From an uncultured Schlesneria sp. (lineage in GTDB: Bacteria; Planctomycetota; Planctomycetia; Planctomycetales; Planctomycetaceae), in the NCBI GenBank assembly GCA_903840265.1, contig CAIMFH010000137.1, positions 1-52,709 of the forward strand: DNA of 52,709 nucleotides, written 5' to 3'. The translations under genes were made by a program, and so were the position numbers. The notes below the pieces were generated by a model that did no database searches, was not told where the DNA came from, and saw only the letters and a list, made by a program, of their open reading frames with translations. Shown here piece by piece: positions 34,881 through 42,107 of this stretch (positions are counted from its first letter, which is position 1; each line of letters starts with the position of its first letter).

Positions 34881-36980
34881 CTAAGTGATCATGCAGTCGG
34901 TGCACAAATACGCCAAGTTGCCAAAGTGGTCGGTCGGGGGCGCGACGTTGGCGCGATCGAACGGCGTCGCTTCGCGGCATTCAGTGCATTGGATTTTCAG
35001 CGAAGGAAGATCAAGATGCATGCCCAATCCGGCGGGTAGAATACTTGTTAGACCAGATCGCTCGCGCAGCCCTTTTACCAGGGGGATTCGCACATCAGTG
35101 AAACCTGCCCAGAACTCACCGATCAACACCAGTCGGGGTGAGGGTTTGAGGTTGCGCAACAGCTCGGCTGTACCGAGGTATCCCAGATGTACCTTCCGCG
35201 GCTCACCATGCGGATCCTTCAACTCCTCGATTGTCGGTTGACTGATATGCGCAATCAACAGATCAGACTGCTCTAAGTGTTCAACGAGTTCTGGAAAATA
35301 TCCTGTGTCGGCGGTGTAACCGATCGTTAGCGCCGTCTGACCGTCGTCATCCAACAATTCGATACGCATCCCCATCGCATTCGGGACATCTCCATCCTTT
35401 GCATGTTCTACCTTGAACGGAGTAATCCGAATCGGAATTTTCTGCGGATGATGGGCTGCCAAATCGAAGGGCTGCGTCAATGCCGTGTTAAGTTGTACCG
35501 GTTCACAGCGGTGCTTAGTCCTGTCGAAGAGAAACCTGGTCGCGCCCTCTGTATCCTTGTCCCAGACCACCAAATAAGGCTTTCCCAATCCTTTCATTCG
35601 GGTGAACACTTCGTAGCGCAAGTCGTCGATCGATTTCATGTCGTAGTTGTGATCAGGGTGATTGTGACTGACAATCACCACGCTGATCTCGCGCCCGTGA
35701 TACCCTGCATCGTGAAAGTTGCGGAGGAAATCGAAGCCAGGATCAATGACAATGCCGTGCCCTTTCCACTTCAAGAAATAACCGCCGCCTCGCCACCGCC
35801 GTTCCGATCCTTCTAGTAATGTGACTGCACTGCTCCATCCCCGCAGAATGCTTAGGACATTGTCGCGACCAGAATCCGCCCGATCATCTACATATTTGTC
35901 ATATTGAGTGTCACCAGCTTGACGGATGGCGGCGATAATGCCGTCCTCGATCTGTCGTGTCTTTTCGATGGAAGACGACATCGCCAGCACGGCCTGATCG
36001 TCTGGCGACAAGGCTGCTGGCTCGATCTGTGACTCGACGAGCCTCAGACTGAGACGAGCCCTTGAATGTTGAAGCCCGCCTCGATCGGGACAGTCCAACG
36101 CCGTTTTGAAAGCTTTGACAGCCTCATCTCGTCGGCCTGCCTTCGCATAGACTTCAGCGAGGTTGGTCCAAGCCTTGGCTGGGGTTATGTAATTCGGAGC
36201 GTCAAGAGCCTTGCGATACGCTTCGATCGCATTGTCGTATTCGTCCTTGCCAGCGTACGCCAGACCCAGGTTGTTCCATGCGCTTCCTGGGGTATCGTAA
36301 TTCGGAGCGTCTAGAGCCCTGTGATAGGCCTCGATCGCTTCGTCGTACTCGCCCTTGCCAGCGTGTGCGAGACCGAGATTGTTCCAAGTGGCTCCTGGAC
36401 TATCGTAATTCGGAGTGTCGAGTGCCTTGCGAAGGGCGTCGATGGCTTCGTCGTACTCGTTCTTGCCGATAAGTGCCAGACCCAAGTTGCTCCAAGCGTT
36501 TCCCGGAGTAATATTATTCGGAGTGTCGAGTGCCTTGCGGTACGCGAAGATCGCTTCGTCGTACTCTCCTTTGCTCGCATAAGCGAGACCGAGATTGTTC
36601 CAAATGAATCCTCGCGTCTCATAATTCGGGGTATCGAGGCCCTTTCGATAAGCCCTGATCGCTTCGTCATAGTCGCCTTTTCGGACTAACGCACTCCCAA
36701 GCACGAAGCTGAAAACACCTTGCAATTCGCTCGGTGTCAATTGTTCGCACGCTAGCAGACGTGCGATGTCGCTGTCGTCGATCAAGCGTGCGAAATCCAG
36801 ACGGCTAGTTTCGAGTATCGTTTCTGCCCAAGTCCATCCGCGAGCTTTGGCAAAGTCCCAAGCCGCACGATGATCATTTCCAAGCGACATCTGCCGATGT
36901 TCTTTTCGCGCTGCCCAAAACAGGCGACTGAATTCGGCATTGGTATCAAGATTCACGGCCTTTGCGTGTCTTTTCGCCAT
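34881..36980 (-). CDS. TPR / metallo-beta-lactamase fold / C-terminal zinc-ribbon fusion protein
   Basis: A 699-aa cytoplasmic protein (no signal or membrane segment). Residues 1-90 are helical. Six TPR units with a 36-residue period follow (EYDEAI at 102, 138, 174, 210, 246 and a last one at 282; linker LDTPNYDTPGSAWNNLGLAY). From about 383 there is an MBL-fold hydrolase: GGGYFLKWKGHGIVIDPG, VSHNHPDHN (H439, H441, D443, H444), H525, TADTG (D558) and VHLG (H598), a complete dinuclear metal site. The C-terminus is a CxxC-x24-CxxC ribbon (C665, C668, C693, C696). MBL enzymes hydrolyse nucleic acids, cyclic nucleotides, thioesters and others; the substrate here is unknown. Not part of an obvious operon. 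Base composition seems lower in GC than neighbours. I know no name for this arrangement. Confidence 0.88.
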   Translation of the reverse strand: MAKRHAKAVNLDTNAEFSRLFWAARKEHRQMSLGNDHRAAWDFAKARGWTWAETILETSRLDFARLIDDSDIARLLACEQLTPSELQGVFSFVLGSALVRKGDYDEAIRAYRKGLDTPNYETRGFIWNNLGLAYASKGEYDEAIFAYRKALDTPNNITPGNAWSNLGLALIGKNEYDEAIDALRKALDTPNYDSPGATWNNLGLAHAGKGEYDEAIEAYHRALDAPNYDTPGSAWNNLGLAYAGKDEYDNAIEAYRKALDAPNYITPAKAWTNLAEVYAKAGRRDEAVKAFKTALDCPDRGGLQHSRARLSLRLVESQIEPAALSPDDQAVLAMSSSIEKTRQIEDGIIAAIRQAGDTQYDKYVDDRADSGRDNVLSILRGWSSAVTLLEGSERRWRGGGYFLKWKGHGIVIDPGFDFLRNFHDAGYHGREISVVIVSHNHPDHNYDMKSIDDLRYEVFTRMKGLGKPYLVVWDKDTEGATRFLFDRTKHRCEPVQLNTALTQPFDLAAHHPQKIPIRITPFKVEHAKDGDVPNAMGMRIELLDDDGQTALTIGYTADTGYFPELVEHLEQSDLLIAHISQPTIEELKDPHGEPRKVHLGYLGTAELLRNLKPSPRLVLIGEFWAGFTDVRIPLVKGLRERSGLTSILPAGLGMHLDLPSLKIQCTECREATPFDRANVAPPTDHFGNLAYLCTDCMIT

Positions 36981-39347: not shown

Positions 39348-40196
39348 TTATGACTTGCGAGTCATGATTTCTGAGGCTGCCGCGATGGCTTCGCGGACCA
39401 GGGTTCCCATCTTGGGATGAGAAGGTTCCAAATCGACAGTTAAGCCCCCTTCGACCAGGGTCTCGGTCGCCGTCGGACCGATGGAAGCGACGACGCACCG
39501 TTGGGTGGCCTGCAGCCATTTTTCGCGAGAACCGGATTCCTCTGCGACCGTAATCAGGTGGTGGAACTGCTGCGCACTGGTGAACAGAATCAGGTCGAAC
39601 TCGCCACGAATCGTTTGCTGGATTGCCTGTCGCAATGGCTCCGTATCCGCGGGCAATTCCCAACGGTAGACGGGAACGGACAGAACGCTGGCACCGAGGC
39701 GTTGCAGCTCACCTTCCAGCGTTTCACTCTGTTTTCCGTACTCCTGAACGGCGATTTTCTTCCCGACGAGTGGAACTTCGGCCACCAGCGTGGCGAGCAA
39801 CTCGCGCCAGGTATTCGGTTCGGGAGCTCGATGATCGATCTTCAAACCCCAATCTCTTAGCACGGCGGTCGGTTTGGGGCCGCGAACCACGATCGTGCAG
39901 CGATTGAATGCCGCCAGGATTTCCGGGCGAGGCCACCGAGTTTCCAGGACGTCCATTAACGCGGCCGCTCCGACACCGGTCAGAAACACCATGATGTCGA
40001 CATGCCCGGCAAACAGGCTCTCGCCAAAGGTCAGGGCCGCGTGATTTTCTTCGAGCCGGATTTCTCGCATCGACGGAGCGACCGTGGCGATCGCACCATG
40101 CCGCTCAATCAGCGAACGCATCTCATCGGCCCGGCGACTCTCCAAACTGAGAACGCGTAGGGGCGAAGTGGATGTTTTCGGAGAGGTTTCGGTCAT
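39348..40196 (-). CDS. hemD: Uroporphyrinogen-III synthase
   Basis: A 282-aa two-domain protein that closes hydroxymethylbilane into uroporphyrinogen III for haem, sirohaem and cobalamin. Family features are the N-terminal RVLSLESRRADEMRSLIERH, IMVFLTGVGAAALMDVL (usual form FTSxNGV), IVVRGPKPTAVLRDWGL, GKKIAVQEYG, a mid-domain VYRWELP, FDLILFTSAQQFHHLI and VVASIGPTATETLVEGGL. Sequence conservation in HemD is low, but this motif order is distinctive. It is not next to hemC here. The gene is divergent from the riboswitch-controlled exporter gene. The ATG has only a weak SD. Confidence 0.92.
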   Translation of the reverse strand: MTETSPKTSTSPLRVLSLESRRADEMRSLIERHGAIATVAPSMREIRLEENHAALTFGESLFAGHVDIMVFLTGVGAAALMDVLETRWPRPEILAAFNRCTIVVRGPKPTAVLRDWGLKIDHRAPEPNTWRELLATLVAEVPLVGKKIAVQEYGKQSETLEGELQRLGASVLSVPVYRWELPADTEPLRQAIQQTIRGEFDLILFTSAQQFHHLITVAEESGSREKWLQATQRCVVASIGPTATETLVEGGLTVDLEPSHPKMGTLVREAIAAASEIMTRKS

Positions 40197-40332
40197 GGAA
40201 CGAATCTCGATTGGTCAGTGGGTCGCGACTCGCAGAGTATTGACTTGCAGGGAAGCGGGATCAAGCTGCGGTCGCGCCATATTTCCTTCCTGTGATGGGC
40301 TGCGTAAGATGTTGGCACTGGCCACAGTTGGT

Positions 40333-40376
40333 CCCGGACGAGACGCGCCGTACCCGGTTATGCAAAGACGACGCCC
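40333..40376 (+). promoter_or_regulatory. Guanidine-III (ykkC-III) riboswitch aptamer
   Basis: The segment has the core CCGGACGAG-x3-CGCCGTACCCGG followed by AAGACGACGCC. From memory, this is nearly identical to the Thermobifida fusca guanidine-III aptamer (CCGGACGAG..CGCCGUACCCGG..AAGACGGCGC). Stem P1 is CCGG/CCGG; the pseudoknot pairs GCGCCGT with ACGACGC, with one C-A mismatch. It lies 20 bases upstream of a Gdx/SugE gene, the classical partner. Binding of guanidinium should switch expression on. Confidence 0.85.
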
Positions 40377-40396
40377 TATTCAAAAGGGGTATCGTC
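40367..40396 (+). promoter_or_regulatory. Predicted SD-sequestering hairpin (riboswitch expression platform)
   Basis: GACGA (40367-40371) pairs with TCGTC (40392-40396, directly before the ATG), and CCCT (40374-40377) with AGGG (40385-40388) of the SD AAGGGG. The 5' arm is also the 3' strand of the aptamer pseudoknot, so the two folds exclude each other. Without ligand the SD is hidden; with ligand it is free. This is inference from base pairing. Confidence 0.6.
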
Positions 40397-40714
40397 ATGG
40401 CGTGGTTGCTGCTAATTGTTGCCGGGCTAATTGAAGCGGGTTGGGCTGTCGGCCTGAAATTCACCGACGGGTTCACCAAGTTCTGGCCCAGCCTGTTTAC
40501 GATCCTGGGGATCGTGGCGAGCATGATTCTGCTGTCGATCGCCGCCCGGACGTTGCCGATTGGGACCGCTTACGCCGTCTGGGTCGGAATTGGCGCCGCC
40601 GGGGCTGTGCTGCTGGGAATTGTGCTCCTTGGCGAGCCTGTCAGCCCGGCTCGGATCTTCTTTATCTGCTTGCTATTGATCGCAATCGTCGGGTTGAAGT
40701 TCAGCAGTCATTGA
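40397..40714 (+). CDS. sugE: SMR-family guanidinium exporter (Gdx/SugE type)
   Basis: A 105-aa protein with four membrane helices. It begins MAWLLLIVAGLIEAGWAVGL with the essential central Glu of SMR proteins (GLIEAGWAV), followed by KFTDGFTKFWPSLFTI, PIGTAYAVWVGIGAAG and LGEPVSPARIF. The GLK-T-GFT and W-GIGA patterns fit the Gdx/SugE subgroup, which exports guanidinium by proton antiport, rather than EmrE. The start is ATG 40397 with AAGGGG upstream; the longer 140-codon frame is rejected because it runs through the riboswitch. The guanidine-III aptamer directly upstream supports the substrate assignment independently of the protein. It works as a dual-topology dimer in the membrane. Confidence 0.93.
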   Translation: MAWLLLIVAGLIEAGWAVGLKFTDGFTKFWPSLFTILGIVASMILLSIAARTLPIGTAYAVWVGIGAAGAVLLGIVLLGEPVSPARIFFICLLLIAIVGLKFSSH

Positions 40715-40821
40715 TGGAAGCGAGGGTGACGAAGGCATTTGCCCGTCTTGAATAGGTCGTCCCTCCCTAGCATTGGCCTCCGTTCATTCAAAAAAGGCCG
40801 CGGCGAGCATATCATTCCGGG

Positions 40822-41583
40822 ATGATTGCTCAATTTGCATTGATGTTGATACTAGGGATGAGCCTGATGTGGGCGCTGATGCCGCGCTCACAGGTCACCG
40901 CCGGGTTCTTTCGCATCCAGATGATGGTGGCGATGGGACTGGGGGTTCTGGCGATGCTGACGTTGGGACAACTGACGTCTTCGAGTGGCCAACAGATCTC
41001 GGATGAATGGATCCTGGCCGCGCGAATCACGGCGGGCGTGGTCGCCGCCTGCGGTTACGTCGGGTCCGTGCTGTGGATGCTCGACAAACGCCGAGCGGGA
41101 ACAGTCTGCGTGTTTGTCATCTTGATCGCCAGTTTCTGCAGCCTGGTGCTGTCTCGCGGTGGATTTGAATCTGGAGCGTTGGTGCTGATCTCTCAAGTTG
41201 CCACAGCAGCCGTGCTTGGGGGAGCGGTGACGGGAATGCTGCTGGGGCACTGGTACTTGACCGCTCCGACCATGTCGATCGATCCCTTGAAGCGACTCAG
41301 TCTGTTGTTCGGAATCGCTGTCATCTTGCGACTGCTGGTCTCTGCCGCTGGCTGGCTGCTGGCGGGAACGGTTTTGACAGGCGGAACGGTCTGGACGTGG
41401 TTCGCGTTGCGATGGCTGGCCGGGATTATTGCCCCGCTGGTGATCTCCGCGATGGCTCTGCAAATCCTGAGATATCGGAATACACAAGCGGCGACCGGAG
41501 TTTTGTTTGCAGGGGTGATCCTGACTTTTATCGGCGAAATGTCCGCGGCGTTATTGTATTACGAACTGCACGTTCCTCTTTGA
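40822..41583 (+). CDS. Polytopic membrane protein, unknown
   Basis: A 253-aa protein with about seven to eight hydrophobic helices. Segments include FALMLILGMSLMWALM, VAMGLGVLAMLTLG, ITAGVVAACGYVGSVLWML, TVCVFVILIASFCSLVL, LFGIAVILRLLVSAAGWLL and WLAGIIAPLVISAMAL. A distinctive motif, LLGHWYLTAPTMSIDPLKR, lies between helices 4 and 5. It begins 107 bases after sugE and is followed 44 bases later by the zinc-ribbon membrane protein, so an operon is possible. I do not recognise the family. Confidence 0.82.
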   Translation: MIAQFALMLILGMSLMWALMPRSQVTAGFFRIQMMVAMGLGVLAMLTLGQLTSSSGQQISDEWILAARITAGVVAACGYVGSVLWMLDKRRAGTVCVFVILIASFCSLVLSRGGFESGALVLISQVATAAVLGGAVTGMLLGHWYLTAPTMSIDPLKRLSLLFGIAVILRLLVSAAGWLLAGTVLTGGTVWTWFALRWLAGIIAPLVISAMALQILRYRNTQAATGVLFAGVILTFIGEMSAALLYYELHVPL

Positions 41584-41627
41584 TTCGATCTTAATTCCAC
41601 ACGCGAACCAGAAGCGTTTGTTATTCC

Positions 41628-42107
41628 ATGCAAATCACGTACGACTGCCCCAAATGTCTGCAGCCCGAGCGCAGTGAAGTGACTGCCGCCAGCCAGGCGA
41701 TCATGTGCCCCGATTGCCAGTGGACTCGTCCGATTGGCGAAGGGGATCTGCAGGGTGAACTGCCCACCAGATGCCTGGCCTGCGGATGCCAGGATCTGTG
41801 GCGACAGAAGGACTTCTCGCAGACATTGGGCGTGGCGATTGTGGCCCTGGGTGTCGTTCTCAGCACCGTGGCCATGGCCTACATGCAGCCGGAGTTGTCG
41901 CTGGGCATCTTGATGGTGTTCGCACTCGCCGACATGATCTTGTTCGTCGTCATGCGCGATTGCCTGGTCTGCTATCGCTGTCATGCCAGATTCCGTCGCA
42001 TCCCGAACCTCGAACAGGTGGGAGCATTCGACCTTGAGGTGAATGAACGTTATCGTCAGGAAGCAATTCGGCTCAAACAAGCAGAACAATCCGTCGCTCC
42101 GCGGTAG
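41628..42107 (+). CDS. Zinc-ribbon membrane protein, unknown
   Basis: A 159-aa protein. The N-terminus has paired ligands CPKC and CPDC (about 7-10 and 27-30), a third pair CLAC followed by CQ (about 49-54), and a CYRC after the membrane region. Two hydrophobic helices, VAIVALGVVLSTVAMAYM and LGILMVFALADMILFVVM, separate the cysteine clusters, placing the ribbons on the same side of the membrane. This resembles small multi-ribbon membrane proteins of unknown function. It lies in a tight co-directional run (44 bases after the previous gene, 60 before the next), but the neighbours do not reveal a role. Confidence 0.8.
   Translation: MQITYDCPKCLQPERSEVTAASQAIMCPDCQWTRPIGEGDLQGELPTRCLACGCQDLWRQKDFSQTLGVAIVALGVVLSTVAMAYMQPELSLGILMVFALADMILFVVMRDCLVCYRCHARFRRIPNLEQVGAFDLEVNERYRQEAIRLKQAEQSVAPR

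What the first reader, a model, noticed from the sequence alone, without database searches (positions are those of the whole stretch)
40333..40396. Guanidine-III riboswitch with a readable switching mechanism upstream of a Gdx exporter in a planctomycete
The aptamer core (CCGGACGAG-x3-CGCCGTACCCGG ... AAGACGACGCC) matches the guanidine-III class, and the next gene is a Gdx/SugE-type exporter, its usual partner. The pseudoknot 3' strand (40368-40374) is also the 5' arm of a hairpin that hides the SD and ends exactly at the ATG, so ligand binding and SD sequestration exclude each other. The pseudoknot has one C-A mismatch relative to the well-known form, which may mark a lineage variant.
Basis: partly seen in the sequence, partly recalled or inferred. 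Interest (0 to 1): 0.75.

Follow-up and report, generated by a model that had tools for sequence, protein, structure and literature searches.

The report
Guanidine riboswitch controlling an exporter gene
This is an RNA sensor of a known kind that most likely lets a planctomycete bacterium make a guanidine-export pump only when guanidine is present; the odd base mismatch in it is shared by many other members of the class, usually together with one matching change elsewhere in the RNA.

Summary
Rfam's Guanidine-III model matches window 40315-40377 (+) at 55 bits (cut-off 36), 19 nt before a Gdx-type SMR exporter gene (40397-40714). The 3' strand of helix P2 can instead form a hairpin (40367-40396) that closes over the SD and ends at the ATG: -15.4 kcal/mol, or -1.7 without that strand. 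Of 40 planctomycete leaders compared, 32 fold better than 95% of linker shuffles, and in 33 the P2 strand closes over or pairs the SD; one clade of 8 deviates.

The mechanism is not new: guanidine-opened translation and RNase E protection are in print.

The C-A mismatch does not mark this lineage. That pair is C.A or A.A in 40 of 40 planctomycete leaders and C.A in 51 of 110 pattern loci. In the crystal structure it forms a triple with nt 10. Where the insert is 2 nt, A10 occurred only with C15.A38: 50 of 50, then 16 of 16 in fresh genomes. So the 'mismatch' may be an alternative triple; shared descent is not excluded. Within this family, guanidine-II serves other Gdx genes.

The parts
40315..40377 (+). 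Guanidine-III riboswitch aptamer (RF01763), whole model
   Evidence: cmscan 55.0 bits, E 9.8e-9
40320..40333 (+). 5' hairpin (P0) of the Rfam model, 40320-40324 with 40329-40333
   Evidence: Rfam alignment; sequence
40334..40337 (+). P1 5' strand CCGG, pairs with 40354-40357
   Evidence: sequence; one fully compensatory change (G-C to C-G) in L159, 0 unpaired cells in the helix
40354..40357 (+). P1 3' strand CCGG
40343..40343 (+). A10 of the third strand (numbering of the T. fusca structure, C1 = 40334); predicted partner of the C15.A38 pair
   Evidence: C15-G38.G10 triple in PMC5696562; with a 2-nt insert A10 was seen only with C15.A38
40345..40351 (+). P2 5' strand GCGCCGT; C40348 = nt 15
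40368..40374 (+). P2 3' strand ACGACGC; A40371 = nt 38, non-Watson-Crick opposite C40348; shared with the OFF hairpin
40367..40396 (+). Alternative (OFF) hairpin: 40367-40371 with 40392-40396, 40373-40377 with 40386-40390
   Evidence: -15.4 kcal/mol against -1.7 without the P2 strand; shuffles and natural controls; in MFE and centroid of the 106-nt leader
40384..40389 (+). Shine-Dalgarno AAGGGG, 7 nt before the ATG, inside the OFF hairpin
40397..40714 (+). gdx (sugE-like) SMR exporter, 105 aa
   Evidence: PF00893 99 bits; NCBIfam SugE NF008512 118.7 bits, under its cut-off of 126; closest solved structure Gdx-Clo 6wk5, E 1e-31; has E13, W16, S42, Y59, W62 (translation; residues named in PMC7695847)

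Best explanation
A guanidine-III riboswitch, an ON switch, in the leader of a guanidinium exporter gene. Without guanidine, the 3' strand of P2 (40367-40374) pairs with the bases between it and the ATG, forming a hairpin that contains the SD, so little exporter is made. Guanidinium binding locks the P1/P2 pseudoknot and its triple helix, which uses up that strand and leaves only a weak 3-bp remnant around the SD, so translation starts; protection from RNase E may add to this. Shown here by computation: the class membership, the shared strand, the recurrence of the competing hairpin in most of the planctomycete leaders compared, the exporter type. Inferred: ligand binding, direction of switching, translational control. 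The non-Watson-Crick pair C15.A38 is read as an alternative base triple with A10 that leaves P2 weak unless the third strand docks (inference).
For: Rfam hit. 40 of 40 planctomycete leaders over the cut-off precede a Gdx-like SMR start (a 41st match, G635, under the cut-off, was dropped). OFF hairpin: 32 of 40 with p<=0.05 against linker shuffles, mean z -3.2; one leader per genus, 20 of 22; 15 of 26 short leaders at or under the 5th percentile of 69 natural pre-start controls, MWU p 2.3e-9. Its two halves fit each other better than halves swapped between leaders: 332 of 20000 permutations reach the sum (25 leaders), 38 of 20000 with one per genus (16). The helix from the P2 strand closes over or pairs the SD in 33 of 40. 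0 intrinsic-terminator-like sites in 40150-40820. Gdx residues incl. W16. An RNase E/G family protein is encoded in the genome. Nearest-neighbour estimate of P2, triple helix ignored: C.A -3.4, C-G -10.6 kcal/mol.
Against: No binding or expression data. L013 has no hairpin better than shuffles (p 0.94). The predicted SD exposure in the window rises only from 0.33 to 0.50, since a weak inner stem can persist. The half-swap test is modest: the own 5' half is best or tied-best in 2 of 25. In-line probing of a published RNA is reported to show P1 and P2 formed even without ligand (PMC5696562), which differs from the model here.
Confidence: 0.87

Rival explanations
1. The aptamer acts mainly on mRNA stability: the guanidine-bound pseudoknot blocks RNase E scanning, and the SD hairpin is secondary.
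For: Published for guanidine-III as reported by the review PMC12186494, citing Richards and Belasco 2021 (passages; that paper itself is not held). The genome encodes an RNase E/G family protein, 332.7 bits. In one clade the hairpin does not cover the SD in 7 of 8 leaders.
Against: The SD-covering hairpin recurs in 33 of 40 leaders with different linkers and registers, which stability control alone would not need. The PF10150 match does not tell RNase E from RNase G.
Confidence: 0.1
2. Transcription attenuation: the competing hairpin is a terminator.
For: The hairpin is stable and mutually exclusive with P2.
Against: 0 terminator-like sites in 40150-40820, shuffles give 0.9 on average. The hairpin ends at the start codon and no U-tract follows.
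Confidence: 0.02
3. The C.A mismatch exists because A38 must pair with U in the OFF hairpin, not because of a base triple.
For: A38 has a predicted U partner in 37 of 40 planctomycete OFF hairpins. Among the pattern loci, A38 leaders have stronger competing hairpins than G38 leaders (median z -1.71, n 58, against -0.54, n 42; MWU p 1.3e-5; not corrected for descent).
Against: U15 would give a Watson-Crick pair with A38 and keep the OFF pairing, yet is seen in 0 of 40 planctomycete leaders. A38G in silico costs the OFF hairpin a median of only 0.6 kcal/mol. Leaders with U15-A38 have hairpins as strong as C15.A38 ones (median z -1.74, n 10, and -1.71, n 47), and U15.G38 leaders are nearly as strong (-1.48), the weak ones being C15-G38 (-0.38). 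It does not explain the tie to A10. The two accounts can both be true.
Confidence: 0.35

Closest known systems
Guanidine-III (ykkC-III) riboswitch, RF01763; Thermobifida fusca crystal structure (PMC5696562)
   Same: P1/P2 H-type pseudoknot, ACGA core, CGTACCCGG, AAGACG joining strand; position before an exporter gene and near its ribosome binding site
   Different: Pair 15/38 is C.A with A10 instead of C15-G38.G10; the 22-nt linker between P2 and the ATG forms a hairpin with the P2 strand. C.A is common in the class.
Guanidine-II (mini-ykkC) riboswitch before gdx in the same planctomycete family
   Same: Same ligand and the same exporter type; of 15 further Gdx-like loci examined, 11 carry one over the cut-off
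   Different: Different fold (PMC5696562); its exporters lie outside the group that holds the planctomycete guanidine-III exporters. No match in the window's own genome.
Gdx-Clo (6WK5), SMR guanidinium exporter
   Same: Best solved-structure match over residues 1-104, E 1e-31; E13, W16, S42, Y59, W62 shared
   Different: Sequence diverged; NCBIfam SugE model scores just under its cut-off

Membership tests
Guanidine-III riboswitch (RF01763) | Covariance-model score over the curated threshold | tested here: met
   55.0 bits against 36
Guanidine-III riboswitch (RF01763) | P1 pseudoknot helix CCGG/CCGG conserved by pairing | tested here: met
   4 pairs formed in 39 of 39 distinct planctomycete rows, one pair with a change on both sides in L159; CCCG/CGGG also in Myxococcota and Actinomycetota loci
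Guanidine-III riboswitch (RF01763) | P2 helix of 7 pairs | tested here: met
   6 of 7 pairs form; the middle one is C.A or A.A in 39 of 39 distinct rows, a state also common elsewhere in the class
Guanidine-III riboswitch (RF01763) | Genomic partner in guanidine export or metabolism | tested here: met
   Gdx-like SMR gene starting 19 nt after the end of the model match
Guanidine-III riboswitch (RF01763) | Binds guanidinium and activates expression | not testable with these tools
   needs in-line probing and a reporter
SMR Gdx subtype | W16, with E13, S42, Y59, W62 (W16 separates Gdx from Qac; PMC7695847, passages) | tested here: met
   all five present in the window protein (translation; residues)
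SMR Gdx subtype | NCBIfam SugE equivalog cut-off (126 bits) | tested here: not met
   118.7 bits, still the best model by far, the next being 72.3. So the gene is called Gdx-type from residues and structure match, not by that equivalog model.
SMR Gdx subtype | Guanidinium/proton antiport | not testable with these tools
   needs transport assay

The most novel reading that the evidence does not exclude
Guanidine-III riboswitches come in two versions of one base triple. Where the crystal structure has G10 in the groove of C15-G38, many members in several phyla (Planctomycetota, Actinomycetota, Myxococcota and others) have A10 with C15.A38. That version keeps P2 weak until guanidinium docks the third strand, so that in planctomycetes P2 itself, not only the third strand, is remade by the ligand, in competition with a hairpin over the SD.
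Probability: 0.4. Interest if true: 0.5.

Novelty: new member of a known kind. Interest (0 to 1): 0.33.

Why it matters
As a single find it adds a planctomycete member to a class whose taxa, in the papers seen here, are Actinobacteria and delta-Proteobacteria (first report) or mainly Actinobacteria (review), and it shows that gdx genes of one planctomycete family carry one of two unrelated guanidine sensors. The useful part is the pair 15/38: a 'mismatch' present in 40 of 40 planctomycete leaders compared and tied, in this sample, to nt 10 of a known base triple. It gives a two-nucleotide test (A10, A38) of how this small pseudoknot is tuned between staying open and folding on the ligand.

Tried and rejected
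P2 5' strand pairing with the start codon (AUGGCG) in the OFF state, suggested by the MFE: not supported, since observed starts pair no better than synonymous-codon versions (median fraction 0.45 over 40 leaders).

Exchange of riboswitch class on one exporter lineage, suggested by a same-genus genome (G024) with guanidine-II: not supported. In the exporter tree all 40 planctomycete guanidine-III rows fall in one group of 52 (99/96) with 12 of the 27 guanidine-III rows from other phyla (Myxococcota, Pseudomonadota, Verrucomicrobiota, Cyanobacteriota); the 13 guanidine-II rows lie outside it; the other 15 guanidine-III rows, from Actinomycetota, lie farther out. So guanidine-III exporters as a whole are not one group apart from guanidine-II ones. 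Whether the guanidine-II rows are one clade is unresolved (held-together test p-AU 0.08).

Mismatch as a mark of this lineage: rejected.

Results that weaken the A10/C15.A38 tie: 1 exception with a 1-nt insert (L233, A with U15-A38) and 4 A-first loci with C-G among 3-5-nt inserts (L047, L073, L105, L148), where the register is unclear; the converse does not hold (C.A also with G10 or C10 in 8 of 103 rows, and 6 of 25 fresh ones). Fresh data alone give Fisher p 0.037; a strict first parse of them (71 of 95 loci; 14 new distinct with a 2-nt insert) gave p 0.21. The relaxed parse read 80 of 95 and can misread rows (L257 came out differently; not a 2-nt row). On a quick exporter tree of 88 rows only 2 supported independent pairs exist, so the tie cannot be shown free of shared descent.

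Dropped: L160 (G635) under the cut-off; 9 of 119 pattern loci without a P2 3' strand; 6 of 110 without a start codon; 15 of 95 fresh loci unparsed; matches under the cut-off not fetched or not used. The sets hold one planctomycete record (L044), the same locus as L006. Viral pattern loci L194-L200 were not studied; a plasmid search gave 2 records, not followed.

Literature: searches for the mismatch, triple covariation or planctomycetes with guanidine riboswitches listed no paper on them; two searches listed only 20 of 171 and 10 of 64 papers. Sherlock and Breaker 2017 and Richards and Belasco 2021 are not held, so what they show is known here only through other papers. The Rfam seed alignment was not seen.

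Full report
What is there. Rfam's only match over threshold in the window is Guanidine-III at 40315-40377 +, full length, 55.0 bits against a cut-off of 36. It is the one match found in the assembly. The next gene, 40397-40714, is a 105-aa SMR protein (PF00893) whose best NCBIfam model is SugE, slightly under its equivalog cut-off (118.7 of 126 bits); its best solved relative is the guanidinium exporter Gdx-Clo (E 1e-31). It carries E13, W16, S42, Y59 and W62 (translation); W16 is described as conserved in Gdx and Gly/Ala in Qac proteins (PMC7695847, passages). Upstream and divergent is a hemD-like gene (PF02602).

Anatomy. With C1 = 40334 (numbering of the T. fusca structure paper, PMC5696562): P1 40334-40337/40354-40357; P2 40345-40351/40368-40374; third-strand A10 = 40343; C15 = 40348; A38 = 40371. 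GACGA 40367-40371 can instead pair with TCGTC 40392-40396, with GCCCT 40373-40377 against GGGGT 40386-40390, enclosing the SD 40384-40389 and ending at the ATG 40397. The hairpin is -15.4 kcal/mol; without the P2 strand the remaining linker folds at -1.7. It is present in the MFE and centroid of 40315-40420, though that stretch as a whole is not more stable than shuffles (z -0.60).

Is it more than chance across relatives? Guanidine-III was found in 13 of 392 genomes drawn from the phylum, 15 of 170 of the family and 36 of 397 of the class (35 over the cut-off); these samples overlap and give 41 matches in all, of which the 40 over the cut-off were compared. All 40 precede a Gdx-like start. 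The competing hairpin beats 95% of linker shuffles in 32 of 40 (33 of 40 in a second run), in 20 of 22 with one leader per genus. Against 69 real pre-start regions with an SD-like motif, 0 of 69 match the window's hairpin and 15 of 26 short leaders lie at or under the 5th percentile. Swapping halves between leaders weakens pairing (332 of 20000 permutations as good; one per genus 38 of 20000), but the own half is the best or tied-best in only 2 of 25, so most of the signal is the shared strand plus SD, with modest extra fit. The f2g19 clade differs: in 7 of its 8 leaders the helix of the P2 strand does not cover the SD, so SD masking is not shown there.

Mechanism in print. PMC5696562 (abstract, passages, sections 6, 11, 12 and part 1 of section 16 seen) states that guanidine probably stabilises the folded riboswitch, destabilises competing structures and exposes the ribosome binding site. 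The review PMC12186494 (passages) states the same and adds protection from RNase E, citing Richards and Belasco 2021. An RNase E/G family protein is encoded here. No intrinsic-terminator-like site was found in 40150-40820.

The mismatch. In planctomycetes pair 15/38 is C.A in 30 and A.A in 10 of 40, never Watson-Crick (39 of 39 distinct rows). On the exporter tree nt 15 changes at least twice among these rows. Elsewhere, in 110 of 119 loci of a capped pattern scan that could be read: C.A 51, C-G 34, U-A 12, U.G 12, A.A 1. In the tree sample, the 9 of 27 other rows with G38 are loci of Actinomycetota (names, states). The structure paper describes C15-G38 with G10 in its major groove. Tabulating nt 10 among 103 rows with a 2-nt insert (40 planctomycete, 51 actinomycete, 12 other): A10 occurs 50 times (30, 12 and 8), always with C15.A38; the other 53 rows are C.A 8, other 45 (Fisher 4.9e-21, not corrected for descent). 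Fresh genomes: 61 of 195 in the phylum of Corallococcus, 38 of 296 in that of Streptosporangium (31 over the cut-off) and 3 of 194 in that of Haloferula (2 over the cut-off) had a match (each sample including the known centre genome). From 95 loci given, 34 new distinct aptamers were read (18 actinomycete, 16 myxococcal); of the 25 with a 2-nt insert, A10 in 16, all with C15.A38, the rest 6 C.A and 3 other (p 0.037). Exceptions with other insert lengths and a stricter parse are listed under Tried and rejected. On the tree the traits change 4 and 5 times and in the sampled pairs never in opposite directions, but with 2 supported independent pairs no significance can be claimed. Chemically, A10 could contact the Hoogsteen edge of A38 as G10 contacts G38 (inference). 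Nearest-neighbour energies put P2 at -3.4 (C.A), -3.1 (A.A), -8.5 (U-A), -10.6 (C-G) kcal/mol; they ignore the triple helix. The combined reading is that the C.A form keeps P2 weak so the SD hairpin wins until guanidinium docks the third strand. A38 also pairs with U in the OFF hairpin in 37 of 40 leaders, so two constraints may act on one base.

Distribution. In the window's family 43 of 170 genomes have a Gdx-like gene at E <= 1e-15 (44 matches); the 15 best-scoring genes belong to the 15 genomes with guanidine-III. Of the next 15 loci, 11 have guanidine-II over the cut-off directly upstream, 2 have one under it, 2 none; the 14 weaker matches were not examined. The exporter tree (82 rows, 106 columns, few columns for so many rows) puts all 40 planctomycete guanidine-III exporters in one group (99/96) with 12 from Myxococcota, Pseudomonadota, Verrucomicrobiota and Cyanobacteriota, guanidine-II ones outside it, and 15 actinomycete guanidine-III ones farther out.

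Verdict. A genuine, well-preserved guanidine-III switch, by inference an ON switch, of a gdx gene; ordinary in kind. The worthwhile addition is the coordinated A10/C15.A38 state.

Noticed in passing
L176-L190 (planctomycete family of the window): The next-best Gdx-like genes without guanidine-III mostly carry a guanidine-II riboswitch directly upstream (11 of 15 over the cut-off): two unrelated guanidine sensors divide one exporter type within one family.
   Followed up: partly
L006 and L044 (Phycisphaeraceae), leader between aptamer and start: An 81-nt linker made of repeated TGGGCCCCTGGAGCCCG-like units sits between the aptamer and the GTG start, unlike the 17-49 nt of the other 39 planctomycete leaders.
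   Followed up: no
L003, L004, L007, L008, L025, L027, L029, L032 (clade f2g19): A different expression platform: the P2 strand pairs with TCGTG-like sequence upstream of the SD, leaving the SD outside that stem in 7 of 8; how these switch is open.
   Followed up: partly
L159; L227, L290, L291; L239-L241, L247-L249: P1 reads CCCG/CGGG instead of CCGG/CCGG, a both-sided change that keeps pairing, in Planctomycetota, Myxococcota and Actinomycetota.
   Followed up: partly
window 34881-36980 (-): A protein with TPR repeats in near-identical units followed by a metallo-beta-lactamase-fold domain.
   Followed up: no
window 40822-42107 (+): Two ORFs (253 and 159 aa) after gdx with no Pfam or NCBIfam match at E <= 0.001.
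   Followed up: no
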